NCBI RefSeq assembly: GCF_900103665.1
Contig: NZ_FNGY01000001.1
Coordinates: 310,001-374,000 of the forward strand
Direction of reading: 5' to 3'
Length of the DNA: 64,000 bases
From: Pedobacter steynii
Lineage (GTDB): Bacteria > Bacteroidota > Bacteroidia > Sphingobacteriales > Sphingobacteriaceae
Below the pieces are notes generated by a model that was given only the letters and a program-made list of their open reading frames with translations, was not told the origin of the DNA and did no database searches. Every line of letters starts with the position of its first letter. Positions within the stretch are counted from its first letter, which is position 1. A program made the position numbers and the translations under genes. This document shows positions 21,895 to 35,158 of the stretch, piece after piece.

Positions 21895-22128
21895 ATGGAA
21901 TACAAAGTAGTGCCATTTATCGCAACGCTAAATCAGCAAAAGGAAACAAGTGATACTGTTGCTGATCAATTGGAAAAGGTAATAAAACTGGCCAATCTTA
22001 AAGGTTGGGAATATGTCCGGTTGGAAAGTGTATCGACTTACGTACAAGCCGAGTCGGGCTGCTTTGGATTTGGAGGAAAACCTGGTTATGTATCATCCTA
22101 CCAGATGGTTGTTTTCAGTAAAAGCTAA
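21895..22128 (+). CDS. Small DUF4177-like protein
   Basis: The 77-residue protein fits the small beta-alpha-beta DUF4177 pattern: YKVVPFIATL at the N-terminus, then VADQLEKVIKLANLKGWEYV, and a C-terminal strand SSYQMVVFSKS. No signal peptide or membrane segment is seen. It lies 2 bp before the YidD-like gene, so the two are co-transcribed. Its function is unknown in the family. Confidence 0.7.
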   Translation: MEYKVVPFIATLNQQKETSDTVADQLEKVIKLANLKGWEYVRLESVSTYVQAESGCFGFGGKPGYVSSYQMVVFSKS

Positions 22129-22130
22129 CC

Positions 22131-22412
22131 ATGAAAATCTCGCTTCTTTTATTGATTCGCTTTTACTGGGCAGTCATTCCTAAAGGCAAATGGCGCAAGT
22201 GCATATTCAGAACCAGTTGCTCTCAATATGTCTACCAAATCACAAAAACTGAAGGCCTCTGTAAAGGACTACTGGCATTAAAATACAGATTTCAACACTG
22301 CAGAGGCGGATTTCACATTTTTGAGAATCCTATTGACGGGCGTAAAAATATGATTTTATCGAACGCTCAGATCCTTACAGAAGAGGAGATCGCAGAAAGG
22401 TTGATCAGATGA
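22131..22412 (+). CDS. yidD: YidD-like membrane protein insertion efficiency factor
   Basis: The 93-residue protein shows the YidD signature: LLIRFYWAVIPKGKWRKC, CIFRTSCSQYVYQ, then GLCKGLLALKYRFQHCRGGF. YidD is a small inner-membrane-associated protein that helps YidC insert proteins. Members normally lie between rnpA and yidC. Here it sits between a DUF4177-like gene and a small secreted protein gene, and carries an extra C-terminal stretch (ILTEEEIAERLIR). It may be a second, accessory copy. Confidence 0.75.
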   Translation: MKISLLLLIRFYWAVIPKGKWRKCIFRTSCSQYVYQITKTEGLCKGLLALKYRFQHCRGGFHIFENPIDGRKNMILSNAQILTEEEIAERLIR

Positions 22413-22730: not shown

Positions 22731-23837
22731 ATGGATTTTAAAGATCAGATTGCACAGTTAGCATCTCGTGTAGAGAAGATGTTACCTCAAATACAAACAG
22801 AAGAAGCGACAAAAAATGCTTTGGTGATGCCATTTATTCAGATCATGGGATATGATGTTTTCAATCCTTTTGAGGTGAACCCGGAATTCATTGCGGATTT
22901 GGGGATTAAAAAAGGGGAGAAGGTAGATTACGCGATTATGAAAGATGGGGAGCCCACCATATTAATCGAATGTAAACACCATCAGGAGAATTTGGACCCG
23001 CACAATTCTCAGTTGTTCAGGTATTTTCATACCACCAAAGCTAAGTTCGGCCTGTTAACCAATGGTTTGGTATACCGTTTTTATACCGACCTCGTGGAAA
23101 AGAACAAAATGGATGGTACACCATTCTTTGAATTCAAATTAACGGAAATCAAGGATGCGGAAATTGCGGAATTGAAAAAGTTTCACAAGTCTTATTTTGA
23201 TGTAGAGAGCATTACAAATACCGCGAGCGAGCTAAAATACCTGAACGAATTGAAAAGCCTCCTTCATAAAGAGATCGCCGATCCTTCCGATGGCTTTATC
23301 AGTTTCTTTACAAAGCAGGTTTATCCAAAGGTGATTACTGCGAAGGTTAAAGAACAATTTGCACCGATTATTAAACGCTCCTTTAATCAGCTCATCAGCG
23401 ATGCAATTAATGAGCGCCTGAAATCCGCGCTAAATCAGGAAAAGGAAAAAGACGCCTCAGAAGCCATTAAAATCGAAGAAACCATAAATGCCGAACCTGA
23501 ATCTGGAATTGTAACCACAGAAGAGGAGATCGAAGGATTCTTTATCGTAAAATCCATGCTTAGAGAAACGATCGATTCCAAAAGGATTACCTACAGAGAT
23601 GCCCTTTCCTATTTCGCGATTCTGCTGGACGACAATAACCGTAAGACCATTTGCCGCTTATACCTGAATACCAAAAAATACCTGGCGGTGCTCGATGAGC
23701 ATAAAAAAGAAACGAAGTACGAATTGCAGTCGCTCGATGATTTATACCATCATGCAGGCATCTTGAACGGAGTTCTTGCGCGACTGGAAGCGGTGAAAGT
23801 TAACGACCTGAATCCATCATTAAATAACGCCAATTAA
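22731..23837 (+). CDS. HsdR N-terminal-like PD-(D/E)XK nuclease domain protein
   Basis: The 368-residue cytoplasmic protein has the type I restriction enzyme R-subunit N-terminal fold: EEATKNALVMPFIQIMGYDV, then KVDYAIMKDGEPTILIECKH. D66, E80 and K82 form a complete PD-(D/E)XK set. There is no helicase motor, and no hsdM or hsdS nearby. The C-terminal half is helical and unassigned, with EEIEGFFIVKSMLRETI and YRDALSYFAILLDDNNRKTI. It lies 12 bp before the vWA-like lipoprotein gene and appears to be the first gene of the operon running to 34922. Stand-alone HSDR_N proteins are widespread and their role is unclear. Confidence 0.75.
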   Translation: MDFKDQIAQLASRVEKMLPQIQTEEATKNALVMPFIQIMGYDVFNPFEVNPEFIADLGIKKGEKVDYAIMKDGEPTILIECKHHQENLDPHNSQLFRYFHTTKAKFGLLTNGLVYRFYTDLVEKNKMDGTPFFEFKLTEIKDAEIAELKKFHKSYFDVESITNTASELKYLNELKSLLHKEIADPSDGFISFFTKQVYPKVITAKVKEQFAPIIKRSFNQLISDAINERLKSALNQEKEKDASEAIKIEETINAEPESGIVTTEEEIEGFFIVKSMLRETIDSKRITYRDALSYFAILLDDNNRKTICRLYLNTKKYLAVLDEHKKETKYELQSLDDLYHHAGILNGVLARLEAVKVNDLNPSLNNAN

Positions 23838-23849
23838 AACTTATAGATT

Positions 23850-25388
23850 ATGAATATAGTTAAGAACCTGGGTTTCCTCAGGATCACAGGAACATTTGGA
23901 TTGTTGATCATCCTGTCTGCTTGCAATAACAATAAAAACACGTCGGCAACTGATCCATTTGCTAAGGTAAACCTGTATGATCAGGAGTTAGGCAAACGAA
24001 TAGAGGCCTATGATCAAACCATCGCTCCGAACAATGCCAATTCAAAAAGTGGTAATCCGGCCTTATATATTGATTTCTCATCTGGCATCAATAAAGCATT
24101 TGCGGAACCAGGGATTAAAGAAATGATGAACACTTGTTTCAATACTGTTTTGGCTCAAAAGTTTGATGTCTATAAGCTTGGTTCAAATCAGATTACACTT
24201 TTAAACATTGCGAATACCACTGAATTAGGTCAGCAGGTAAGTGACCCGGCCCAATACGGCGACATTTGGGCCCCGATCCAGTCGGCGGTTGAAAAAATTG
24301 TAGCCGGCAATAATGACGCGTTATTAATTACTGATTTTGAAGAATGGCAAAAGAACATTGAGGTTACCCGTACTGCTTTTCTGAAAATTCCTTTCTCCCA
24401 ATGGCTGGAAAAAGGAAATACCATCCATTTCTTTATCGCAGATTACAAGGAAGGTCCTGTTGATAAACACCTTTATTTCACCGTTTTCAATTGTGGCAAT
24501 CCAAATGAATCCAGCATGATTTCAAAACTGGAATCTAAACTGGAACCCTTTACCACAAGGTTTGATTTATCCAATAAATCCTATAAACTGCGTACCGGTT
24601 ACCCAGGAGAGAAGTCGGGCGGTATATTTTACGACCCAAGTGGTAAAAAAGATAACGATAAGAATGTCCTGGATTTAAAGGATAGCTATGTAAACGGGCT
24701 TAAAAAAGGGAATCATTTCGAATTTTATCCTTTAGGTGTAGATTGGAATACCATCGATAAACTTCATGCCAGCTACGCCAGTCAGCAGCAGTTTAACGAC
24801 TTCTTTAGAAAGCTATATATTGATTTAAGCAATGAGGATAGCTATTCATTTGGTGATTTTGATGTAAAAGTCTCCGATGTAAGCACTGATTTTGAAAATT
24901 TTGCTAAAACTGAAGAAGCTAAGAAACACCGGCCAAAATTAACTAAAGGAGCCGATGGGGAGGCGAAGTTTGCTGATCAGGAAACCGATGATATTGCAAC
25001 GGCATGTTATGATACCAATGGAAAAATAAAAGAACAATGGATCTATAAATCAACACCTGCTATTCCTGTAAATGAGGTTTTTACTTTTAACAAGTCCCTG
25101 TTTAACAACACCAAAACATCCGATACTAAAAACGTAGAGTTTGGTGTGTCTTTCGATCCCAGGTTCAGCCTGAAAAACATTCCAAATCCGAAGGGTTTAC
25201 TGAAGGTCGACCTGCTGTTGAATACCGCTACGCCTAATCTTGCGGGCGAAAAGCTTTCCAAGCTCCAATGGGTTAATGCTAAAGGTACGGCGAACACCGC
25301 ATTGTACGAGTCTGTCAAAAACACCTTACAAGAGCTCAAGCCAGCTCATAAAGTCATCTATTCCTACTACATCAAAACTCAACAATAA
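23850..25388 (+). CDS. Lipoprotein with a vWA-like domain
   Basis: The 512-residue protein has a lipoprotein signal with lipobox LSAC (Cys25). ALYIDFSSGINKAF (D75, S77, S78) resembles the DxSxS metal-site strand of von Willebrand A domains, and ALLITDFEEW (D162) fits the later strand ending in Asp. The middle part (LRTGYPGEKSGGIFYDPSGK) and the C-terminal beta-rich part are unassigned. A vWA lipoprotein beside tubulin-like and OmpA-like genes fits an envelope anchor of the same complex. The vWA call rests on motif shape only. Confidence 0.6.
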   Translation: MNIVKNLGFLRITGTFGLLIILSACNNNKNTSATDPFAKVNLYDQELGKRIEAYDQTIAPNNANSKSGNPALYIDFSSGINKAFAEPGIKEMMNTCFNTVLAQKFDVYKLGSNQITLLNIANTTELGQQVSDPAQYGDIWAPIQSAVEKIVAGNNDALLITDFEEWQKNIEVTRTAFLKIPFSQWLEKGNTIHFFIADYKEGPVDKHLYFTVFNCGNPNESSMISKLESKLEPFTTRFDLSNKSYKLRTGYPGEKSGGIFYDPSGKKDNDKNVLDLKDSYVNGLKKGNHFEFYPLGVDWNTIDKLHASYASQQQFNDFFRKLYIDLSNEDSYSFGDFDVKVSDVSTDFENFAKTEEAKKHRPKLTKGADGEAKFADQETDDIATACYDTNGKIKEQWIYKSTPAIPVNEVFTFNKSLFNNTKTSDTKNVEFGVSFDPRFSLKNIPNPKGLLKVDLLLNTATPNLAGEKLSKLQWVNAKGTANTALYESVKNTLQELKPAHKVIYSYYIKTQQ

Positions 25389-25415
25389 TTAACTGTCATC
25401 TCTAATCAAAAAAAA

Positions 25416-25754
25416 ATGGAATCTACATCAGCTTACTTCATCTCTATCGTTACTGCTTTAATTTTTCTGCTGCTGGCAGCGATCATTGCCAATGCCATAA
25501 AATTTGAGGGTGGCAGTCATCCCAAAGACCCACAATCACGGAAAACCTGGTTCTGGATTTTAGCCATCCTAAATCCGGCAATAGGCTTTTTACTGGGCTA
25601 TTTTGTATTCAAGCCTGAGGCAAATGTGATGGTCGTAAATAATTATGTAAATGCTTTAAGCATAGGAACAGTAATCGGATTTGTGCTGTATCTCCTTCTG
25701 GGCTTCATCCTGAGTAAAGTATTTGCCAACGGCAAAATTGGTCACTGGTTTTAA
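25416..25754 (+). CDS. Small integral membrane protein
   Basis: The 112-residue product has three hydrophobic segments: YFISIVTALIFLLLAAIIA, WFWILAILNPAIGFLLGYFV and GTVIGFVLYLLLGFILS. A short loop between the first two carries HPKDPQSRKT. It lies 27 bp after the lipoprotein gene and 13 bp before the tubulin-like gene. It is probably an inner-membrane element of the complex; no family is recognised. Confidence 0.7.
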   Translation: MESTSAYFISIVTALIFLLLAAIIANAIKFEGGSHPKDPQSRKTWFWILAILNPAIGFLLGYFVFKPEANVMVVNNYVNALSIGTVIGFVLYLLLGFILSKVFANGKIGHWF

Positions 25755-25767
25755 ATTCTAAATTTCA

Positions 25768-27411
25768 ATGGATAAATTATTTGTCATCGCGATAGGCGGT
25801 ACCGGAATGCGTTGTTTAGAATCTTTCACTCACCTGTGTGGTATTGGGATGTTCGACAACCAGGAAATAGAAATATTGACCTTAGATACGGATCAAAATA
25901 ACGGCAACAAAGGCAGGGTGGAAGAGCTCATCACCCTATACAACCAGGTCAAAACATCCGGTGCAACAACCGGTGGTACACCAAATGCCAATACGTTCTT
26001 TTCCGCGAAGCTGAACCTACACCGGTTCTGGACCAATTATTCCGGCCCCGGAAGAGAGAATTATAAAAACATCAGCAAAATTTCTACAGGCACACCAGAG
26101 CAGCAAAAAGCCAATAAACTGATCTCCGATTTATTCCTGGATACCAGGTCTGTACAGGAGTTTGCTTTGGAACATGGCTACCGGGCACAAACACATCTGG
26201 GCTCTATGCTGATGTATCATGGGATTGTCGAAGCAGCGAGAAACATCTTGAAAGGATCTGCTGTACAATCTCAGGAGCGGGAGCTGGATGCCTTCATGGG
26301 GAAACTTGAAAAAGCAGGTGCTTCGGCCAGGGTGTTTATTTTCGGATCTGTATTTGGCGGAACCGGAGCATCCTCCATCCCGGTAATTCCCAAAGCGCTT
26401 CAGGATTTTGTGAAGATTCGTTCCAACGGAAATTCGAGCATAGATTTCTCTAAAGCAAAGTTTGGCTCCACCTTGCTAACGGAATATTTTACGTTTAATA
26501 AGCCCGATGATCAGCAGAAATCAAATAAAGCCAATAGCGTTATTGCTGATTCCTCTTTCTTTCCATTGAATAGTCAGGCGGCATTACAATTTTACCAAAG
26601 TGATCCCACTGTGCAGAAATGCTATAAATTGCTGTACCATATCGGCTGGCCGATTGAAAGTAAAAAGATAGATGGGAACAATACCTCAAATCAAACGATC
26701 ACCGGCGGAGGTGAACAAAAGAATCCTTGCCATATCACCGAATTACTGTGCGCCTGTGCGGCCTACGATTTTTTTACCCGTACCGATGGTTTTAACAGTG
26801 CAAAGGCTGATTATTTATATAAAGCGGTAGAATTTAAAGACAATTCATTCAACTTCTCCTTTGATGATTTTATTGGAAAAGAGCATAAATCAGGTGAAAT
26901 TTTCGTCAACAAATTAGGCGCATTTTTCTCCCTGGCGCACATCTCTTTAACCAAGAACGGTGCTGCTTTTGACGATGCTGGTATCAAAGGTTTTATCAAA
27001 CAATGTGAAAATCAGAAACTACATCAGTACAGTACCATTTCAGATGTAGAGTGTAAAGACATCAATGAATACTTCAAGCTTTTTGCCTACACTTTTAAAG
27101 ATGCCCGGTTTATTCCCGGCTGGCTTTACCAGGTGAGGAATTCTGTAGCGCCAGGTCGTTTCCTGTTCGACAGCAAAGCATTTCCGGACAATCAAACCGA
27201 GCTCAGGAAATTGGATGTAGGAACCATTTTCCTTGATGATAAACACCATTGGTCGAAAGGAGGAATGTTTAGCAACAGATACGACACTTTTGTCGCACAA
27301 CTCATCAATACCGGCCCTAAGGATGAACAGAAGGTAAACACGACAAAGGAGAAATTCCTCGCTCACATTTTTAATGCACTTACCATTTCACAAAACTTCG
27401 ATATAAACTAA
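25768..27411 (+). CDS. Tubulin/FtsZ-like protein (Tubulin_2 type)
   Basis: The 547-residue cytoplasmic protein starts with a Rossmann-like strand and glycine turn, LFVIAIGGTGMRCLESF, and EIEILTLDTDQNNGNKGR, as in tubulin-superfamily GTPases. The tubulin signature loop is FGSVFGGTGASSIPVIPKAL, with GGTGAS at residues 197-202. It is longer than FtsZ and lacks the conserved FtsZ C-terminal tail, so it is not the division protein. FtsZ-like families of this kind are reported beside vWA and OmpA proteins and proposed to remodel membranes. The nearby actin-like ATPases and TerD proteins are the distinctive context here. Confidence 0.75.
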   Translation: MDKLFVIAIGGTGMRCLESFTHLCGIGMFDNQEIEILTLDTDQNNGNKGRVEELITLYNQVKTSGATTGGTPNANTFFSAKLNLHRFWTNYSGPGRENYKNISKISTGTPEQQKANKLISDLFLDTRSVQEFALEHGYRAQTHLGSMLMYHGIVEAARNILKGSAVQSQERELDAFMGKLEKAGASARVFIFGSVFGGTGASSIPVIPKALQDFVKIRSNGNSSIDFSKAKFGSTLLTEYFTFNKPDDQQKSNKANSVIADSSFFPLNSQAALQFYQSDPTVQKCYKLLYHIGWPIESKKIDGNNTSNQTITGGGEQKNPCHITELLCACAAYDFFTRTDGFNSAKADYLYKAVEFKDNSFNFSFDDFIGKEHKSGEIFVNKLGAFFSLAHISLTKNGAAFDDAGIKGFIKQCENQKLHQYSTISDVECKDINEYFKLFAYTFKDARFIPGWLYQVRNSVAPGRFLFDSKAFPDNQTELRKLDVGTIFLDDKHHWSKGGMFSNRYDTFVAQLINTGPKDEQKVNTTKEKFLAHIFNALTISQNFDIN

Positions 27412-27417
27412 AGGAAC

Positions 27418-30400
27418 ATGTCAGATAAAAGAATAAAAGCACTGGCGATAAAAGTTCAGGCTAAAACGGAACCAAATGGTGTTGAATTTGCCTGGGATAA
27501 AATCCCTCAGCTGGAAGTTTTTACCAAGAACATTTTAATACCTGAAATAGCCGTTGATAAAGACGGAAACTCATCGGTTAATATTGGAACTATCGTTTCC
27601 GGAATTCCCTCTGTATTTGCCCGGGCAAACTTGTTTAAAAGTGCGCTGGATAACATTCAGGACAAAGATGCCGATGCTGCGGGATTAATGCTGTTTTACA
27701 AATCTTTGATTAGTGAATGGAAAGGCTTCATCAGCTGTATCGCATTAAATTACAAAGATATAGAGGTGAATAGGATTCACCTGGCCTATTCTGATGGGCA
27801 GCAGCTCATCAATACCGCGAATATCTATGAGCCAATAGGTGCATTTGGAAATATGCTCTTTGAGCGGCAGCCGCTTTGGTGTGACCAGTCGCTGGCGAAT
27901 AACACGGATAAAATCCCTTTTATTGACGTCATCTCGTTTAAGGGCAATGTGGTTGGTGGAACTTCTCCAGACAGCTTTTTATTCACCTCTGTAGCGTATA
28001 ACCTTAAAGAAAAACTGCCTTTTGTAAATGTACAGAACGGAAAGTTTATAGATCCTTTAAAATCCGAACTCAATCCCCAGGAACTGTTTACGCTATATGG
28101 TTACGCCAAACATATTCTCAAAAATATAGAGCAATTCAGGTCCAATTATGGGGACCTGGAAGAGTTCATCAGGCCGGAATACGGTAATATGTCGGGTTGT
28201 CTTCAATCATGGATTGAGGAGATGACCGTTTATCAGGAAAAGAAAGGATATCCGAAACTTGATGTTCAGGCAGCACCTGAAGTTGGCGCGTTGTTTAATT
28301 ATCCTTTTAGCATTTTGTTTAATTATTCTACAGAGTTGTTTGGCTCTGAAGGGATCATCTACAATGAATCAAAAGAGGGCAGCATCAGCTTTGATCCTAA
28401 AGACCTGCTGCTGCCAGATACGACGGAGATTGCACAGATTGATTTCGGAAAAGAAGGGATGGAAAACAGGAACTATCTGAAATCCAAACCTATATTGTTG
28501 CTGGCTGCAGAAACTAAAGGTCAGCCAAACAATTATGCCTACTTCACTTTACCGTTAACACCACTGGCCTTAAATGTTTTTGGCGCTACGCTGGAAGCAT
28601 TGGTCGGCATTTCAGAAGCCTCAAACGTAAAGTCACGGATTACGGCTATTTATGACCCGAATGATAAAAACGGGGAGCGTTTAATCGTCAACCTGAGACT
28701 GTATACGGAAACCGGAAACGAGATCATTAAAGAGGTCATTTATAAGATCACTTCCACCTCCATAGCAGGAAAGGACATTTTAATGTGGCCTAACTTCATT
28801 TCCAAACAATGGAACCGGTATTTTCTTTATTCAGAAATTCCACATAATGATGCTAAGTTCCAGGCGACACCATTTATTGGCAATGTAGAGGATGATTTCT
28901 TCCGGATTGTGCTGGATGAAAAGGGAGTTCCCCTGTATCTGGCCAATAACGGCAAAGCAGCTATAGTTCCAGAAAAATACGGCAATATCAAGGCGCAATT
29001 GCATGTCACTTCCAATAATGCAGTAGCAGATAATAAGTATAAATATGAGATTTATGAGAGCAACCAGCCTTTCAAAGGGATGAAGTTTGCCCATGCAGGA
29101 ATTGATTGTGGTTTTGGGATCATTCGTTACGATGGCTCGGGCAATACACAGGCCTTACCGGTCAATATGCTGAATTCTCCAAGAACATTGTCGCCCGCAT
29201 TTTTAGGGGTTGACTTTGGCAGTACAAACTCTTCTATTGCCTATTTCTCTGACCAGAGAAATGAAGTCTGTGAAAGTTTAAAGTTAACCAATAAAAGAGT
29301 TTCGCTGTTGTCTACCGACACGAAAAATAACGATAAACGTCCGGCGGTAGAAGATGAGATCTTCTTCTTCCAAAACGATGAAATCCTCAGCAATTCTATT
29401 AAATCAGTGCTCACGATCCATGATTCGAGAAGAATTGTAAACGAGGGCAATATCCTGAGCGATTCATTGATGGCACAGGCCGTAAAGGGCGGATTCCCTT
29501 GCTTTGAAAAAAATCTGCCGATTGAAAATGCAGAAGATAACCGGTATATCCTAAGTTACAATAGAATAGGCAGGGCAGAACTGGTTTACAATATGAAATG
29601 GTCTTCCCAGCCTATCGATAAGAGTTACAAAACGGCATATCTGAGCTCTTTACTTCTGCATGTGTATGCACAGTTGTTCATCGAAGGTCATGAGCCCCAT
29701 ACTTTAAAATGGTCATATCCATCCTCAATGGGTAAAGAATTGTTGAGCGAATATAGAGGGATATGGGATTCACTGAAAGAGATCTCACCGATTGTGGGCA
29801 ATGTGAAGTTGAAAACATATCCTCCTTCAGACCTCTCCGATATTGGCGAGACTTCAGGCAACAGTACCTGGGCTGCGCCAGCGGCAACATCAGGCTGGGG
29901 CGATGGTATGGCTGAAGCTCCGGTGCAAGATTCCGGTTGGGGTGCAACAGCTTCGGGCAGCAATGGATGGGGAACGGAAACTCAGGTTCCGACAGTTGCC
30001 GCAGGTTGGGGTAATGAAGCTTCAAAGAAGGCGGTGGCAGTAGTAAATATCGCGACAGAAACCGCTGCCCTGCGGTTTGATTTTAGAAAATTAAGCAATG
30101 AAGAGTCACTTTCAGAAGCCTGTGCGGTAGCGAATTACCTGGTCAGGCCAAATGGTGGTTATTCCATCGGTCCCAGTGAACTGGTGCTTTGTTTTGACAT
30201 TGGCGGCAGTACCACTGATATTACTGCATTGTGCCAGATGGATGGTGGAAAGGCGATGATCAAACAAAACTCTATTCGTTTTGCAGCGGAGCGGGTAGCA
30301 CAGGCGACTAAATTTTCTCCCAATTTCAAAAACGTGTTGTTGAGGATGTGCGAAAGGAAGAACATCTCCATTCAGGGATTAAATAATGGGAGCAATAAGT

Positions 30401-31329
30401 TTTCTGAAAATACAGCCCCTTATTATTTTGAACAGGTGGTAGACCGGTTGGAGGCTGCAGATTTTGAAACCTTTTATCTTTTAATTGCCGCAGAATGTAA
30501 GGAGATGATGAGCATCAACCTGTATGTGACTGGTTTAATCATGTTTTATGCGGGGCAGCTGGCTTATAAATTAAGAAATGAAATTGTCAAATCGGAAGAT
30601 GCACCAGCGTCCGTTAAAGCCATTCCTCCCAAAATTAAGATTGCTTTTGCAGGAAAGGGATCCAGGATTTTCGATTGGTTCGCTGCAGTAGATCCAAAGG
30701 CCGCAGATGATTATTATACGCAGATGTTTATCCGGGGGATGGGCGGAGAAAGCATCGCAAGGGCAACCATTAGCCCAATGAATACCAATCCTTTAAAGAT
30801 CATCGACATCAACTCTCAGCGCGGAACAGATAATGCAGATGTTAAATATGAGGTGTCAAAAGGTTTGGCCATTCCGACAAACATTACCAGCATTTTGGTG
30901 CCAACCAATAAGCAGGCGATAGAAATACTTGGAGAAGATAACTTCTGTGTAATTACCCCTGCAGGTGAGTTCAAATATCTGGAATCCACTAATTCTATTA
31001 CGCCGGAAATGCTGGAACACATCGGAAATCACTTTATCTGTTTACCTCCGGAAGGAAAGCCACATTGCCCGAGGTTCATGGATTTCGCAGATCTGTTCTA
31101 TAAAGTCTCTTCCAGCATGTTTGGCTTAAAGATGAATGCTGCAGATTTTATGGCGGGCTTTCAGGACATGAATATTGAAAACTATATCAAAGGAGAGCCT
31201 GGTTTTATCAAGGCGCAAAAGCGGAAACATGACGATCAGAAAGCTTTTGACTATGTCGCGCCGATCATCATTTTAGAAGGAATGAAATTCTTTGAAAAAC
31301 ACCTGCTTAAGGGCATCCAAAAACAATAG
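27418..31329 (+). CDS. Giant Hsp70/actin-fold ATPase (SrfB-like)
   Basis: The 1303-residue protein has an N-terminal ~590-residue region of unknown fold, followed by an actin/Hsp70 ATPase: phosphate-1 FLGVDFGSTNSSIAYF (D599), phosphate-2 LCFDIGGSTTDITAL (D927) and a possible adenosine motif KIAFAGKGSRIFDW. Between phosphate-1 and phosphate-2 lies a disordered Gly/Trp insertion (residues ~812-870). Size and motifs recall the SrfB virulence-factor family, which is from memory. It starts 6 bp after the tubulin-like gene and ends 5 bp before a second actin-like gene. It probably binds ATP and acts as a scaffold or motor for the complex. Confidence 0.72.
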   Translation: MSDKRIKALAIKVQAKTEPNGVEFAWDKIPQLEVFTKNILIPEIAVDKDGNSSVNIGTIVSGIPSVFARANLFKSALDNIQDKDADAAGLMLFYKSLISEWKGFISCIALNYKDIEVNRIHLAYSDGQQLINTANIYEPIGAFGNMLFERQPLWCDQSLANNTDKIPFIDVISFKGNVVGGTSPDSFLFTSVAYNLKEKLPFVNVQNGKFIDPLKSELNPQELFTLYGYAKHILKNIEQFRSNYGDLEEFIRPEYGNMSGCLQSWIEEMTVYQEKKGYPKLDVQAAPEVGALFNYPFSILFNYSTELFGSEGIIYNESKEGSISFDPKDLLLPDTTEIAQIDFGKEGMENRNYLKSKPILLLAAETKGQPNNYAYFTLPLTPLALNVFGATLEALVGISEASNVKSRITAIYDPNDKNGERLIVNLRLYTETGNEIIKEVIYKITSTSIAGKDILMWPNFISKQWNRYFLYSEIPHNDAKFQATPFIGNVEDDFFRIVLDEKGVPLYLANNGKAAIVPEKYGNIKAQLHVTSNNAVADNKYKYEIYESNQPFKGMKFAHAGIDCGFGIIRYDGSGNTQALPVNMLNSPRTLSPAFLGVDFGSTNSSIAYFSDQRNEVCESLKLTNKRVSLLSTDTKNNDKRPAVEDEIFFFQNDEILSNSIKSVLTIHDSRRIVNEGNILSDSLMAQAVKGGFPCFEKNLPIENAEDNRYILSYNRIGRAELVYNMKWSSQPIDKSYKTAYLSSLLLHVYAQLFIEGHEPHTLKWSYPSSMGKELLSEYRGIWDSLKEISPIVGNVKLKTYPPSDLSDIGETSGNSTWAAPAATSGWGDGMAEAPVQDSGWGATASGSNGWGTETQVPTVAAGWGNEASKKAVAVVNIATETAALRFDFRKLSNEESLSEACAVANYLVRPNGGYSIGPSELVLCFDIGGSTTDITALCQMDGGKAMIKQNSIRFAAERVAQATKFSPNFKNVLLRMCERKNISIQGLNNGSNKFSENTAPYYFEQVVDRLEAADFETFYLLIAAECKEMMSINLYVTGLIMFYAGQLAYKLRNEIVKSEDAPASVKAIPPKIKIAFAGKGSRIFDWFAAVDPKAADDYYTQMFIRGMGGESIARATISPMNTNPLKIIDINSQRGTDNADVKYEVSKGLAIPTNITSILVPTNKQAIEILGEDNFCVITPAGEFKYLESTNSITPEMLEHIGNHFICLPPEGKPHCPRFMDFADLFYKVSSSMFGLKMNAADFMAGFQDMNIENYIKGEPGFIKAQKRKHDDQKAFDYVAPIIILEGMKFFEKHLLKGIQKQ

Positions 31330-31334
31330 AAGCA

Positions 31335-32666
31335 ATGAAATTCTGTGTATTAGCGAAAATCTCTAAGCGTTCCATCTCTTTCTGGTATCAATCAGACCGG
31401 AACGCTTATGCGCCATTGAGCATAACGGAATCAAACGAGGTTCCCTTATACTTTTATGTAAATGGCAACGATTTTATTTTTGGAACTGCAGCAAGGGATC
31501 GGTTCAACAGACATGATCCCAATGCTTATGGCAACTATTTTGAAATTATAAAGGACCCGGGGAAGCATTTCAGTATTTATGGCAATAAAAAGCCGGTTAA
31601 ACAGCTGTTTTACTATGGTGTTGAACAATACTTGTCTCATTTTTTGAATACCGTTTTATATAAAACAGATTCTATTGAATCTTACAGGCAGCATTTTCCG
31701 CTTCGCTTTTTATTTGATACGGATATTGAAGACCAGGAGAAATCATTGATAGAACACCTGTTTAAAGAAGCCGGTTACTTTAACCTGGACCGCATTGATT
31801 TCAATAAAGCGTTGTTTGGCGTGTTGACTCAAAAAGCAGTTCTGCCCAAAGGGAAATCCGTTTTATGGTTAAGCAGTGTGGATGATGTGCTATATCTGAA
31901 ACTCTATAAAGATGTCCTGGCGGAGGCGATCGGTTCTTTTAAGCTGGAAGGGCAGGGCGCCGATCCAAGAGTAAAGATTCTCGCAGATATGATTGTAGAA
32001 TACATCATTGTTCAAAATTCTTATTTATCAATTGATAAAGATGCAGAGATCGCTGCCTTGCTTCCCTTTTGTGTCCGTGTGCTGGAAAATATAAGTCCGA
32101 TTATAAAAGGTGATGCCGAACTAATCGATGGAAACAAATATTGGTTTAAGGTGAATGAGCGAAACCTCAACGACAGGCTTCAATATTATTCTAATGATGG
32201 AATGATCTATAGCGCGATAGATGATCTTTTGAAATCTGCAGGTTTAATTGCACAGGAAGTCATCATTCTATTGGGGACAGAGGAAATCAGTACTTCTTAT
32301 TTCTCTGGCAAGTTGCTCAGGAAATACCCGTATGTGCTGGCGGTAAAAGCTGCAGATGCCGGAGATGCGATGAAAGCTGTTTTTGCAGAGATTGCCAGTT
32401 CAAACTATACAGTTAAATCAAAACCGCCGGTTGCAGCACCTGTGTTGGCAGCACCAGCAGTTACCCCACCTGTAGTTACCGCGTCGCCACCTGTATTGGC
32501 AAGACCAGCGCTTCCTACACCAAAGACACCGCCTCCATTGCCACCAAAAAGAGAGCAGCCCGTTTCACAACCGCAGGTAAACATCCCCAAATTACCGGAA
32601 CCAAAACCTGCAATACCCACAAAAGTTAATGCGGTTAAACTTCCGCCACTTCCACCTAAAAAATAA
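31335..32666 (+). CDS. Degenerate actin-fold-like protein with a proline-rich tail
   Basis: This is a 443-residue protein. The N-terminal ~360 residues look like a decayed Hsp70/actin fold: VLAKISKRSISFWYQ at the phosphate-1 position without the Asp-Gly motif, FIFGTAARDRF, and DQEKSLIEHLFKEAGYFNLD before a segment in the place of the phosphate-2 strand. The last ~80 residues are Pro/Ala/Val-rich (PPPLPPKREQP, ending PPLPPKK), like ligands of SH3 or WW domains. It probably pairs with the large ATPase encoded 5 bp upstream. Motif loss suggests it does not hydrolyse ATP. The fold call is tentative. Confidence 0.55.
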   Translation: MKFCVLAKISKRSISFWYQSDRNAYAPLSITESNEVPLYFYVNGNDFIFGTAARDRFNRHDPNAYGNYFEIIKDPGKHFSIYGNKKPVKQLFYYGVEQYLSHFLNTVLYKTDSIESYRQHFPLRFLFDTDIEDQEKSLIEHLFKEAGYFNLDRIDFNKALFGVLTQKAVLPKGKSVLWLSSVDDVLYLKLYKDVLAEAIGSFKLEGQGADPRVKILADMIVEYIIVQNSYLSIDKDAEIAALLPFCVRVLENISPIIKGDAELIDGNKYWFKVNERNLNDRLQYYSNDGMIYSAIDDLLKSAGLIAQEVIILLGTEEISTSYFSGKLLRKYPYVLAVKAADAGDAMKAVFAEIASSNYTVKSKPPVAAPVLAAPAVTPPVVTASPPVLARPALPTPKTPPPLPPKREQPVSQPQVNIPKLPEPKPAIPTKVNAVKLPPLPPKK

Positions 32667-32673
32667 ACACAAA

Positions 32674-33240
32674 ATGGCTATACAACTAGAAAAAAACAAA
32701 TCAATATCGATCGCTAAAGAACAACCTGGGTTAAATCATATTATAGCTGGCTTAGGCTGGGATCCATCAACAGTGAACGGACATCCTGTAGATCTGGACC
32801 TCTCCTTATTTATGCTGGCTGAAAATGGTAAACTGGCCGCAGATGAGTATTTTATCTTTTACAATAACGCTTCGAGTCCTGATGGTTCTACTCATTATCC
32901 CGGCGATAACAGGGGAGGTGAAGGGGATGGAGATGATGAGGTGATTCATCTTGATTTATCTAAAATAGACCCGAAAATAGAGTTTCTATATTTTGCGGTC
33001 ACCATCGATCAGGGAGAAGAAAGAGGCCATCATTTCGGTCATGTGCAGAACTCCTATATCAATATCAGGGATGCTTCAGACCATTCCATTCTGTGCCAGT
33101 ATCAGCTAAAAGACCATTTTACAGACGAAGATTCTATCGTCATTGCAGCGATTTCCAGAAATGGAGGGGAATGGAACGTGGAGGCACTCGGGCAGGCTTT
33201 TTCCGGAGGGCTAAATACACTAGTTGAATTATACCAATAA
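32674..33240 (+). CDS. TerD-family protein 1
   Basis: The 188-residue TerD-domain protein has LEKNKSISIAKEQPGL at the N-terminus and LGWDPS..VDLDLSLFML. The acidic calcium loop is GDNRGGEGDGDDEVIHLDLS. TerD domains bind calcium and occur in tellurite-resistance and general stress systems. The frame extends upstream to 32629 inside the previous gene, but ATG 32674 follows that gene's stop by 7 bp and begins with the canonical TerD strand. A second TerD gene follows by 12 bp, so the two may form a heteromer. Confidence 0.88.
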   Translation: MAIQLEKNKSISIAKEQPGLNHIIAGLGWDPSTVNGHPVDLDLSLFMLAENGKLAADEYFIFYNNASSPDGSTHYPGDNRGGEGDGDDEVIHLDLSKIDPKIEFLYFAVTIDQGEERGHHFGHVQNSYINIRDASDHSILCQYQLKDHFTDEDSIVIAAISRNGGEWNVEALGQAFSGGLNTLVELYQ

Positions 33241-33252
33241 AAAAATATAACT

Positions 33253-33906
33253 ATGAGCAGTTTTAATTTAAGTAAGGGCGACAGGTTCTCCCTTTCCAAG
33301 GCAGCGCCCGGACTAACGATTGTGAAAATTGGCATGGGATGGGACCCTAATGATGAACCCGGCGGACCGGAATTTGATCTTGATGTATCTGCGTTTTCAA
33401 TAGGCAATGACTTTAAAATCCCTTCTGATTCTTATTTTACTTTCTATGGTCAGATCCGGATGGGAAACAAAGTGGAAGACAAAATAGAGAAAGGTTTGTT
33501 CAGGCCGCTTACTGAGGATGGCGCGATTACCGGGGCCATTGATGATCCGGATGGATCGAGAAGTGATGGCGATGATGATGAAGATATGTTTATCGATTTA
33601 ACAAAAGTGAGCCATAAGATTGAACAAATTATTATTTGCTGTACAATCTGTAAATATCCCCACGACAATAACAAAGACCGCAGAACACTGGACCTGAACT
33701 TCGGACAGGTAAATGATTGCTATATCCGTATTGTGGATGAAAGAAGTGGAGAGGAGGTACTAAGGTATGACATGAAAGACCAGTATACCAATGAAGATGC
33801 CGTAGAATTTGGACGGCTATTCCGTGTGGGCGAGACCTGGGAATTTGAAGCCATGGGCAGAGCGCATACTGGCAGCTTGCAGGCATTGGTAGATATGTAC
33901 ACCTAA
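33253..33906 (+). CDS. TerD-family protein 2
   Basis: The 217-residue TerD-domain protein starts FNLSKGDRFSLSKAAPGL and continues MGWDPNDEPGGPEFDLDVS. It has a longer acidic loop than copy 1 (DDPDGSRSDGDDDEDMFIDL) and an insertion before it (IRMGNKVEDKIEKGLF). The C-terminus, VGETWEFEAMGRAHTGSLQ, matches copy 1 (GGEWNVEALGQAFSGGLN). It is cytoplasmic by lack of signal peptide. It lies 12 bp before the OmpA-domain gene, which carries the same N-terminal FDLSKGD motif. Confidence 0.88.
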   Translation: MSSFNLSKGDRFSLSKAAPGLTIVKIGMGWDPNDEPGGPEFDLDVSAFSIGNDFKIPSDSYFTFYGQIRMGNKVEDKIEKGLFRPLTEDGAITGAIDDPDGSRSDGDDDEDMFIDLTKVSHKIEQIIICCTICKYPHDNNKDRRTLDLNFGQVNDCYIRIVDERSGEEVLRYDMKDQYTNEDAVEFGRLFRVGETWEFEAMGRAHTGSLQALVDMYT

Positions 33907-33918
33907 TCATTAGAAATT

Positions 33919-34692
33919 ATGGCATTTGATTTAAATAAAAATAATGGCGCTGATCCGGAATCATCGGGTGAAAAATCAGCTTCCGCGAAGTTTGACCTTT
34001 CAAAAGGAGACCTAGTAGTAGGTGCAAGCCCGCCGGCAGAACCTTCAAAATCGAGAAATTTGATCATTGGATTGGCCGGACTGCTGATCATTGGAGGAGG
34101 GATCTGGTATTATAGCTCCGGCAGAAGCACGGCAACAAGAAACACAGCAACAACAGATACGGCGGCGAAGAGCGCATCAGCGGTGAACAGCGCATCAGCT
34201 GAAGTAACGGCCTCCGATACCACCCTTGCAGCTCCAACTGTTAGCCAGGTTGATAAAGAAAGCCCCGCTACTGTTGAAAATACACCTGCAACCGTTCAAA
34301 ACACCGTTGCTGTTCCTGAGCAGCGGAGCTCCGGTAGCGATAACCCGGTAAAAACAAGATTAAACCATAAAATTCCCGCAACCTTTGCCCAGGGATCTTC
34401 CTTCATTAATCAGATAGATCAATTATTGATCAAACGTATTCTGGCTTATTTATCTAAAAATCCTGAGGCATCAATTCAGGTTAACGGATATGCGAGCAGC
34501 GACGGCATTTTGGAAATCAATCAAACGGTGTCTCAGGCAAGAGCAGATGCCTTTAAGAAATACCTGGTTTCAAAAAATGTTGATGAAAACAGGGTACTTG
34601 CATCAGGAAAAGGAATTGAAAATCCAATTGCATCAAATGATACCAATGCTGGCAGAAAAAAGAACAGAAGGGTGGAGATTATCCTCCCGTAA
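33919..34692 (+). CDS. Membrane-anchored OmpA-domain protein with TerD-like N-terminal motifs
   Basis: This is a 257-residue protein. The N-terminus MAFDLNKNNG and the later KFDLSKGDLVVGA repeat the first strand of the TerD proteins encoded just upstream. A transmembrane helix (NLIIGLAGLLIIGGGIWYY, residues ~47-65) is followed by a Thr/Ala/Ser-rich linker. The C-terminal OmpA peptidoglycan-binding domain (IPATFAQGSSFINQ, IQVNGYASSDG, NQTVSQARADAFKKYL, GRKKNRRVEIIL) is complete. It probably links the inner membrane to peptidoglycan, with a short cytoplasmic tail that could engage TerD or the cytoskeletal proteins. Confidence 0.82.
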   Translation: MAFDLNKNNGADPESSGEKSASAKFDLSKGDLVVGASPPAEPSKSRNLIIGLAGLLIIGGGIWYYSSGRSTATRNTATTDTAAKSASAVNSASAEVTASDTTLAAPTVSQVDKESPATVENTPATVQNTVAVPEQRSSGSDNPVKTRLNHKIPATFAQGSSFINQIDQLLIKRILAYLSKNPEASIQVNGYASSDGILEINQTVSQARADAFKKYLVSKNVDENRVLASGKGIENPIASNDTNAGRKKNRRVEIILP

Positions 34693-34709
34693 ATTAAGAA
34701 ATATCGCCT

Positions 34710-34922
34710 GTGGCTAAGAGAAGAACCAAGAAAATAACAACGAAAGGAAGGAGCCTTAAAGAAGTGCTGATTTTATTAGGAATCCTGTTTAGTGCAATGC
34801 TGTTTATTATAAAAGTGATTACCGGAGGGATAGGCTGGCTTGAAGTCTTTGCGCCTGTGCTGATTGCATTTTTTATTGTTTTCCTGCTGTCGGTATTAAA
34901 GGCGGCACTAAGAAAGGTATAA
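34710..34922 (+). CDS. Small two-helix membrane protein
   Basis: The 70-residue product starts at GTG 34710 with a basic N-terminus (AKRRTKKITTKGR) and has two hydrophobic helices (VLILLGILFSAMLFIIKVI and VFAPVLIAFFIVFLLSVL). It lies 17 bp after the OmpA-domain gene and before the strong terminator at 34969, so it is probably the last gene of the operon. Family unknown. Confidence 0.6.
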   Translation: MAKRRTKKITTKGRSLKEVLILLGILFSAMLFIIKVITGGIGWLEVFAPVLIAFFIVFLLSVLKAALRKV

Positions 34923-34968
34923 TCACGTCCTGAGAATGGTTGACCATTTTAAGTGATACAAATTTTAT

Positions 34969-35010
34969 AAAAAAGCTCAAGTATTTTCAAAGAATGTTTG
35001 AGCTTTTTTA
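34969..35010 (+). terminator. Strong intrinsic terminator of the 22731-34922 operon
   Basis: AAAAAAGCTCAA (34969-34980) pairs perfectly with TTGAGCTTTTTT (34998-35009), a 12-bp stem ending in a T-run. It lies about 47 bp after the last gene of the operon. Confidence 0.85.
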
Positions 35011-35158
35011 TTGTAGGTTTTGATCGCAATTTTTTCTGTTTGTGCATTTGTACTGGTGTAAGCATAACAAGGATCCTTTTTTGAAGTTTTTATAGATTTG
35101 CAGATAGCAACCGATTCAGCTATTTTAGAGGTATTATTGCGTATAAATCAGATAAAAT

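What the first reader, a model, noticed from the sequence alone, without database searches (positions are those of the whole stretch)
22731..34922. Ten-gene operon joining tubulin-like, actin/Hsp70-like, TerD, vWA and OmpA proteins
Gaps are only 5-27 bp and a strong terminator closes the set, so these genes work together. I recall from the literature an FtsZ-like family proposed to act in membrane remodelling with a vWA protein and an OmpA-family protein. Here the set adds a 1303-residue actin-fold ATPase, a decayed actin-like partner, two TerD proteins, an HSDR_N nuclease-like protein and two small membrane proteins. Two cytoskeletal folds with calcium-binding TerD units and peptidoglycan anchors suggest an envelope stress or contact-dependent machine not described in this form to my knowledge.
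Basis: partly seen in the sequence, partly recalled or inferred. Interest (0 to 1): 0.88.

Follow-up and report, generated by a model that had tools for sequence, protein, structure and literature searches.

The report
TerD-mimic tail anchors tubulin–actin machine
A conserved but patchily distributed operon of Bacteroidota encodes a predicted tubulin-like protein, two predicted actin/Hsp70-fold proteins and two TerD proteins, and its membrane-spanning, predicted wall-binding protein carries a tail that repeats the opening motif of TerD, so the tail likely ties the whole assembly to the cell envelope.

Summary
The operon is real and conserved, but not as ten genes. In 80 Bacteroidota loci (of 162 found) the core is lipoprotein – small membrane protein – tubulin-like protein – giant ATPase – actin-fold pseudo-ATPase (g2–g6), always in that order. 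The HSDR_N gene (9/80) and the last small protein (16/80) are optional. AlphaFold2 and Foldseek support an Hsp70/actin fold for the giant ATPase and its decayed partner; 33/35 tubulin-like members match Pfam Tubulin at E ≤ 0.01. Two things were not foreseen. (1) After g6 an output module is exchanged: TerD genes in 49 of 67 loci with enough downstream sequence, a DO-GTPase–GAP1 pair in 15, never both. This ties the operon to published tubulin/GTPase systems. (2) The wall-binding protein (OmpA or CW_7 outside, one membrane helix) has a cytoplasmic tail repeating F[D/N]LxK, the N-terminal motif of TerD: at least two copies in 40 of 49 (shuffles predict 0.004 in total) and in 6 of 6 TerD loci found later. 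One TerD-less relative has an OmpA-type protein without it. Docking of TerD on the tail is inferred, and tail/TerD covariation does not exceed shared ancestry. Best reading: an NTP-driven, TerD-gated, wall-anchored inner-membrane scaffold for envelope or phage stress.

The parts
22731..23837 (+). g1: HSDR_N / PD-(D/E)XK nuclease-like protein, 368 aa; optional passenger of the operon
   Evidence: Pfam HSDR_N E 3e-16; in 9 of 80 loci, next to g2 in 6 and elsewhere in 3
23850..25388 (+). g2: lipoprotein with a divergent vWA-like domain, 512 aa; core
   Evidence: in 76 of 80 loci; Y73, D75, S77, G79 near-invariant and a cysteine in the N-terminal consensus; no vWA family in Pfam; weak co-linear match to vWA profiles
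25416..25754 (+). g3: small membrane protein, 112 aa, about three hydrophobic helices; core
   Evidence: in 78 of 80 loci; helices read from the sequence
25768..27411 (+). g4: tubulin-like GTPase, 547 aa; core
   Evidence: Pfam Tubulin 33/35 and Tubulin_2 28/35 family members at E up to 0.01; GGTGMR and FGGTGAS invariant; in 80 of 80 by selection
26344..26382 (+). glycine-rich loop GSVFGGTGASSIP of the tubulin-like protein (residues 193-205)
   Evidence: nearly all positions invariant in 35 sequences; aligns with the FtsZ glycine loop in hhalign although with low probability
27418..31329 (+). g5: giant protein, 1303 aa, with Hsp70/actin-fold ATPase in its C-terminal half; core
   Evidence: AlphaFold2 of residues 104-1303, mean pLDDT 84.6; the 50 Foldseek hits listed are Hsp70-family, best E 8e-7, with TM-scores of 0.33-0.49 by target length; in 79 of 80 loci
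29203..29244 (+). phosphate-1 motif LGVDFGSTNSSIAY of g5
   Evidence: G597, D599, F600, G601, N604 invariant in 36 sequences
29836..30033 (+). GW-rich, predicted disordered loop inside the g5 ATPase domain (residues 807-872)
   Evidence: pLDDT below 50 at model residues 704-769
30190..30219 (+). phosphate-2 motif CFDIGGSTTD of g5
   Evidence: D927, G929, G930, S931, T932, D934 invariant
31335..32666 (+). g6: pseudo-ATPase of Hsp70/actin fold with proline-rich C-terminal tail, 443 aa; core
   Evidence: AlphaFold2 pLDDT 87; Foldseek best hit DnaK NBD E 9e-16, TM 0.60 by target length; nucleotide motifs decayed; in 72 of 80 loci
32674..33240 (+). g7: TerD1, 188 aa from the conserved start
   Evidence: Pfam TerD E 2e-60; start by comparison with relatives
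32680..32718 (+). TerD1 N-terminal motif pair IQLEK...ISIAK
   Evidence: sequence; compared with relatives
33253..33906 (+). g8: TerD2, 217 aa
   Evidence: Pfam TerD E 2e-45; solved TerD relatives 3ibz and 2kxt
33262..33300 (+). TerD2 N-terminal motif pair FNLSKGDRFSLSK
   Evidence: same stretch in solved TerDs aligned
33919..34692 (+). g9: wall anchor: cytoplasmic TerD-mimic tail, one membrane helix, OmpA peptidoglycan-binding domain, 257 aa
   Evidence: OmpA E 2e-17 at residues 155-250; tail analysis
33925..33939 (+). tail copy 1 FDLNK (residues 3-7)
   Evidence: at least 2 copies in 40 of 49 tails
33991..34005 (+). tail copy 2 FDLSK, followed by GD (residues 25-29)
34057..34113 (+). predicted membrane helix of g9 (residues 47-65)
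   Evidence: hydrophobic stretch read from the sequence; similar place in relatives
34381..34668 (+). OmpA domain of g9
34710..34922 (+). g10: small membrane protein, 70 aa, GTG start; optional
   Evidence: in 16 of 80 loci
34967..35011 (+). intrinsic terminator hairpin
   Evidence: -18.4 kcal/mol, z -5.6

Best explanation
This operon encodes a predicted tubulin-like and actin/Hsp70-fold assembly that is likely held at the inner membrane by a predicted wall-binding protein whose tail repeats the TerD N-terminal motif and would recruit the TerD proteins. Shown directly: the conserved core g2–g6, the either/or exchange of the output module after g6 (TerD genes plus wall anchor, or a DO-GTPase plus GAP1 pair), and repeated F[D/N]LxK motifs in the tail, which among the genes examined are otherwise a mark of TerD itself. 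Predicted: the folds, tail-in topology, and wall binding by OmpA or CW_7. Inferred: TerD assembles through its N-terminal motif, the tail offers the same motif as a docking or nucleating site, and a TerD ligand (calcium, recalled; or a nucleoside-like signal, as summarised in PMC7824862) triggers assembly. The ATPase pair and the tubulin-like GTPase would then build or remodel a wall-anchored patch under the inner membrane that seals or isolates a breach, for example during phage entry. The envelope or conflict role is inferred from patchy distribution, non-shared flanks and kinship with published conflict systems.
For: Core: g2 76, g3 78, g4 80 (by selection), g5 79, g6 72 of 80 loci, no order violation. 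Folds; one g5 member of 36 matches Pfam MreB_Mbl (E 9e-4). Module exchange: of 67 loci with at least 2 kb past g6, 49 TerD, 15 DO-GTPase+GAP1, 3 neither, 0 both; the 15 were found with profiles grown from the L069 pair, all at E below 1e-140. Pfam names were checked on three of them plus one GAP1 protein: DO-GTPase2 over cut-off in L069, L047, L055; GAP1-N2 over cut-off in L069, just under it in L047; only weak GAP1-M hits in L055 and L084. At least 4 changes between the two states on the tubulin tree (quick method). Tail: of 51 TerD loci a tail-type protein was found in 49 (not in L080 and L081, whose contigs end near); strict motif at least twice in 40 of 49, at least once in 48, against 0.004 expected in total from shuffled tails. 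Of 29 TerD-less loci none has an OmpA-type or tail protein. Of 449 other gene-like ORFs one has the motif twice, and it is the L042 tail protein. TerD loci found later: 6 of 6 with at least two copies (L119; L197, L200, L203, L210, L211). TerD-less L120 has an OmpA-domain protein without the motif. The wall domain changes while the tail stays: OmpA in 12 and CW_7 in 11 of 23 scanned. DO-GTPases have also been linked by others to membrane stress (PMC11237479, one passage).
Against: Tail and TerD motif sequences covary beyond random pairing (p 0.0004 in 21 representatives) but not beyond the nearest relative: 7 better, 7 worse, 7 ties. Four Chitinophaga-type tails have one copy only (L027, L028, L029, L050). 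The TerD-less control is a single locus. At position 2 tails prefer D, TerD prefers N or S. The vWA assignment is weak. The g5 Foldseek matches have low TM-scores. PADLOC hits no core protein; only g9 (ZorB models, best E 4e-9, through the OmpA domain) and g1 (Cas4, E 0.0014). No match on phages and only distant cyanobacterial ones on plasmids.
Confidence: 0.4

Rival explanations
1. It is an FtsZl1-type membrane-remodelling machine as proposed in 2010, in which TerD and the wall anchor are structural parts for vesicle or envelope shape and not stress sensors.
For: Tubulin, putative vWA and OmpA-domain proteins occur together here as in PMC2875224; the core is found in free-living and gut Bacteroidota (record titles).
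Against: Patchy even within the genus: 8 of 35 other same-genus genomes have a close tubulin match; 26 of 399 in a family-wide sample including own. A housekeeping remodelling role would be less patchy. Module exchange with DO-GTPase/GAP1 points to a switchable output.
Confidence: 0.25
2. It is an abortive or wall-off anti-phage conflict system of the DO-GTPase/tubulin/HSP70 kind, with TerD as sensor of a nucleoside-like signal made by the separate Ter cluster of the same genome.
For: 15 loci with the same core carry a DO-GTPase and a GAP1 protein, the defining parts of systems in PMC7159879; own genome has HAD, PRTase, two TerD, TelA and TerC together at C27 about 715-721 kb; flanks are hardly shared among Pedobacter loci.
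Against: No PADLOC hit to the core; no variable effector domain seen; the published conflict role is itself a prediction.
Confidence: 0.2
3. The F[D/N]LxK tail is an independent short linear motif that binds a core protein (tubulin-like or ATPase), and its likeness to TerD is convergence because TerD uses the same site.
For: Tail/TerD covariation does not exceed ancestry.
Against: The core is present without TerD in 15 GTPase/GAP1 loci and none has a tail protein; a TerD-less OmpA-domain protein lacks the motif.
Confidence: 0.15

Closest known systems
FtsZl1 family and its predicted operons (Makarova and Koonin 2010, PMC2875224; parts 1-3 of 5 and passages read)
   Same: tubulin/FtsZ-like protein with the glycine loop, beside a (here putative) vWA protein and an OmpA-domain protein; the genome also has a separate FtsZ
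   Different: giant actin-fold ATPase plus pseudo-ATPase, TerD genes and the TerD-mimic tail; the paper's main text has no TerD, Hsp70 or SrfB; the long coiled coil of FtsZl1 was not tested for here
DO-GTPase/GAP1-N2 systems with tubulin, vWA or HSP70 (Kaur et al. 2020, PMC7159879; outline and passages read)
   Same: the same core occurs with a DO-GTPase and a GAP1 protein in 15 loci
   Different: the window's operon has neither; TerD and wall anchor stand in that place; the paper describes the tubulin theme as restricted to firmicutes and actinobacteria
Ter stress systems (Anantharaman et al. 2012; not held; seen only as summarised in PMC7824862)
   Same: TerD domains; predicted sub-membrane structures
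   Different: no TerC, TelA, HAD or PRTase in this operon; those form a separate cluster in the genome
SrfB (PF07520)
   Same: one UniRef relative of g5 bears the name Virulence factor SrfB
   Different: no Pfam SrfB match among 36 g5 members at E up to 0.01

Membership tests
FtsZl1 tubulin operon | tubulin-superfamily GTPase domain with glycine-rich T4 loop | tested here: met
   Pfam Tubulin 33/35, Tubulin_2 28/35 at E up to 0.01; window copy itself below the curated cut-off
FtsZl1 tubulin operon | long coiled coil and helical C-terminal domain after the GTPase domain | not tested
   no structure predicted for g4
FtsZl1 tubulin operon | vWA-domain partner | tested here: inconclusive
   no vWA family in Pfam for 36 members; weak co-linear profile match, DxSxG in place of DxSxS
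FtsZl1 tubulin operon | OmpA-domain partner (in several genomes) | tested here: met
DO-GTPase/GAP1 system | DO-GTPase and GAP1 genes in the operon | tested here: not met
   none of the ten window proteins; found in 15 related loci
Ter system | TerD domain | tested here: met
Ter system | associated TerC/TelA or PRTase/HAD genes | tested here: not met
   absent from the operon; present elsewhere in the genome
actin/Hsp70 ATPase (g5) | fold and phosphate-1, phosphate-2, adenosine motifs | tested here: met
   motifs; fold (E 8e-7, low TM-scores)
actin/Hsp70 ATPase (g6) | nucleotide-binding motifs | tested here: not met
   fold met, motifs decayed in the rows printed
SrfB | PF07520 match | tested here: not met
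   a search of 148 genomes rang nowhere, controls included, so uninformative

The most novel reading that the evidence does not exclude
A wall-bound membrane protein displays copies of TerD's own N-terminal strand as a cytoplasmic seed, so that TerD polymerises on it by strand exchange and clamps a tubulin–actin NTPase skeleton to peptidoglycan: a ligand-gated, through-membrane cytoskeleton–wall clutch whose output cassette (TerD clutch or GTPase–GAP1 switch) is swapped in evolution.
Probability: 0.3. Interest if true: 0.87.

Novelty: new variant of a known kind. Interest (0 to 1): 0.68.

Why it matters
[quoted passage not shown] The tail gives a concrete, testable bridge: one protein crosses the inner membrane, holds the wall outside (predicted) and shows the TerD motif inside. 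It also offers a partner and a binding motif for TerD, whose role in stress has stayed unclear, and shows that TerD and DO-GTPase/GAP1 are interchangeable outputs of one tubulin/actin core.

Tried and rejected
Profile search of solved structures with g2, g4, g5 and g6 gave nothing significant, although the weak g5 hits fall on Hsp70 phosphate motifs. hhalign of g6 against g5 found no sequence kinship. hhalign of g4 against FtsZ aligned only the glycine loop, with low probability. Tail/TerD covariation: null against ancestry. SrfB membership: not supported. Phage or plasmid carriage: none on phages; on plasmids only 5 cyanobacterial records at 25–29% identity. HSDR_N as a core nuclease: rejected (9 of 80). 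A first vWA comparison read minus-strand loci the wrong way round and was redone.

Rows and choices: one search kept the best 80 of 162 relatives. The tubulin tree used 81 rows with tubulin ORFs of at least 500 aa, L039 and L048 falling out, window, L119 and L120 added. I left L048 out of the g4 alignment A2 and L030 and L044 out of the g6 alignment A4. In one search the L042 tail protein was taken from the motif search and L060's by position, since the OmpA profile misses both; without L042 the count is 39 of 48. Four proteins in which the helix scan failed (L007, L033, L048, L083) were cut at residue 60. ORF starts of L014, L027, L028 and L029 are probably too far upstream. The motif comparison fixes K and the hydrophobic positions by construction. 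Of 26 close family-wide matches and others, 16 regions were fetched: 7 repeat tubulins, 5 are the new TerD loci counted above, 3 (L206–L208) are distant copies with no TerD or tail protein in the stretch held, 1 (L209) is a reduced copy.
Full report
WHAT IS THERE. Ten same-strand ORFs fill 22731–34922, with short gaps and a stable terminator hairpin. The window lies on an 8.06 Mb assembly whose nearest named relatives are Pedobacter. Pfam recognises HSDR_N, two TerD domains and OmpA above cut-off, and Tubulin and Tubulin_2 below it.

CONSERVATION. The tubulin-like protein has 1782 relatives at E up to 1e-3. A scan of one-genome-per-species contigs gave 162 loci, of which the best 80 were kept and mapped. 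Counts of 80: g1 HSDR_N 9, g2 lipoprotein 76, g3 membrane protein 78, g4 tubulin 80 (by selection), g5 giant ATPase 79, g6 72, TerD 52 (51 of them downstream of the core), OmpA-type protein 47, g10 16. The core genes present never depart from the order g2–g6: 68 loci have all five, 12 a part, several of these cut by contig ends. So the core is g2–g6; g1 and g10 are optional.

FOLDS. AlphaFold2 of g5 residues 104–1303 (pLDDT 84.6) matches Hsp70 nucleotide-binding domains (best E 8e-7; TM-scores only 0.33–0.49 by target length, the domain being interrupted by a long loop). The phosphate-1 and phosphate-2 motifs are invariant and the adenosine motif conserved: g5 is likely an active ATPase. g6 (pLDDT 87) matches DnaK/Hsp70 domains (best E 9e-16) but its motifs are decayed: a likely pseudo-ATPase. 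For g4, 33 of 35 members match Pfam Tubulin and 28 of 35 Tubulin_2 at E up to 0.01; no structure was run. g2 has a near-invariant YxDxSxG motif and invariant D162 and E164, but vWA is only weakly supported.

THE EXCHANGED MODULE. Loci without TerD carry, in the same place after g6, a pair of about 400 and 800 aa. In L069 Pfam names them DO-GTPase2 and GAP1-N2, both over cut-off. Profiles grown from this pair find both proteins in 15 loci, all at E below 1e-140. Further checks: L047 DO-GTPase2 over and GAP1-N2 just under cut-off; L055 DO-GTPase1 and 2 over cut-off, GAP1-M weak; L084 GAP1-M weak; the other 11 pairs were not run on Pfam. Of 67 loci with at least 2 kb past g6, 49 have TerD, 15 have the pair, 3 neither, none both. 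On a quick tubulin tree of 81 rows the TerD/GAP1 state changes at least 4 times; whether modules moved or whole operons did is not resolved. More distant tubulin/ATPase operons carry other partners, among them MotA/ExbB-like proteins (L113 just over, L112 just under the Pfam cut-off).

THE TAIL. The wall-binding protein starts, in the window, with MAFDLNKN…KFDLSKGD, then a membrane helix, then the OmpA domain. TerD2 starts with MSSFNLSKGDRFSLSK, and the two solved TerDs found start alike. Among the 51 downstream-TerD loci a tail-type protein was found in 49; 40 have at least two strict motifs before the helix, 48 at least one, against 0.004 expected in total from shuffling each tail. One of the 49, L042, was itself found by the motif, though it lies directly after TerD2; without it 39 of 48. 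None of the 29 TerD-less loci has an OmpA-type or tail protein (11 of the 29 end within 2 kb of g6 or before it). Other gene-like ORFs of the same loci with at least two motifs: 1 of 449, and it is the L042 tail protein. Core genes: g2 0/76, g4 0/81, g5 0/79, g6 2/72; GTPase/GAP1 0/30; TerD by the same strict rule: TerD2-type 43/59, TerD1-type 11/36; OmpA-type 38/46. The outer domain is OmpA in 12 and CW_7 in 11 of 23 scanned (six looked at singly carry one or the other), so the tail persists while the wall-binding domain differs. The L083 protein also has a TerB match just under cut-off. TerD loci found later: 6 of 6 with at least two copies. The TerD-less L120 has an OmpA-domain protein without the motif; this control is one locus. 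Against the model: covariation between tail and TerD motifs is no better than with the nearest relative (7 better, 7 worse, 7 ties); position 2 is mostly D in tails and N or S in TerD; four Chitinophaga-type tails have one copy.

DISTRIBUTION. Any match in 13 of 395 phylum-wide genomes, 3 of them close; 22 of 395 class-wide; 54 of 399 family-wide, 26 close including own; in the genus, 8 of 35 other genomes have a close match and 2 a distant one. Among 18 Pedobacter loci (about 7 kb held upstream, 2.5 kb downstream) no extended gene order is shared with the window's flanks; a 77-aa ORF plus YidD upstream recur in 3, and isolated matches elsewhere occur in L019 (up to 86% identity) and L012 (27%). 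This is the pattern of an accessory cassette; transfer against loss was not separated.

HOW IT MAY WORK. Committed model: TerD proteins bind one another, or the tail, through the shared N-terminal motif; the anchor thereby places TerD and, through it, the tubulin/ATPase core at wall-bound sites of the inner membrane; a TerD ligand gates this; GTP and ATP turnover build or dismantle the patch; the lipoprotein and g3 would report from or act on the periplasmic side. Only the parts list, the exchange and the motif are shown; the folds are predicted; all dynamics are inferred.

KNOWN OR NEW. The core belongs with published tubulin neighbourhoods: FtsZl1 (PMC2875224, parts 1–3 of 5 read) and DO-GTPase/GAP1 systems (PMC7159879, outline and passages read). 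Neither text, as searched, sets TerD beside tubulin: TerD occurs 0 times in the main text of the first and once, among effector domains of another system, in the second. Searches for TerD with tubulin, vWA, OmpA, HSP70, calcium or peptidoglycan and for FtsZl1/DO-GTPase listed no paper that by title or start of abstract describes this operon or the tail; lists were capped at 20. Of the listed papers I looked into three by passage or section (PMC2875224, PMC7159879, PMC7824862) and one by a single passage (PMC11237479). The library holds open-licence papers only, and the main Ter survey of 2012 is not held, so prior notice cannot be excluded. Hence: new variant of a known kind, with a testable new mechanism.

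Noticed in passing
L209:9399-9950 (G703:C1, - strand): A reduced copy of the operon: g2, g3 and the tail protein remain, while one 183-aa ORF holds about the first 54 residues of the tubulin-like protein running into the C-terminal part of TerD2; most of g4 and all of g5-g7 are missing.
   Followed up: partly
L112:1829-3457 and L113:2017-3477: Distant tubulin/giant-ATPase operons carry a MotA/ExbB-like protein; L112 also has a short OmpA-type protein upstream, reminiscent of ZorA/ZorB.
   Followed up: no
L122:4271-10134 (G000:C27, about 715.3-721.1 kb): A separate, canonical-looking Ter cluster of the same genome: HAD hydrolase, PRTase, two TerD, TelA, one unassigned protein, TerC.
   Followed up: partly
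L030:18254-20449: A third kind of downstream protein: 731 aa with N-terminal GKIAGN-like repeats and C-terminal hydrophobic stretches, no Pfam hit, in a TerD-less, GAP1-less locus.
   Followed up: no
window 29836-30033: A GW-rich, predicted disordered loop sits inside the ATPase domain of g5, between the two phosphate motifs; the consensus of 36 relatives keeps WG/GWG there.
   Followed up: no
L119:987-4063 (- strand): A relative with three TerD genes and a tail of at least four FNLSK-type copies.
   Followed up: partly
L083:12498-14072: A tail protein that carries, between tail and CW_7 domain, a stretch matching TerB just under the Pfam cut-off.
   Followed up: partly
window 21895-22412: A 77-aa ORF and a YidD-like ORF just upstream recur upstream of the operon in 3 of 18 Pedobacter loci.
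   Followed up: no
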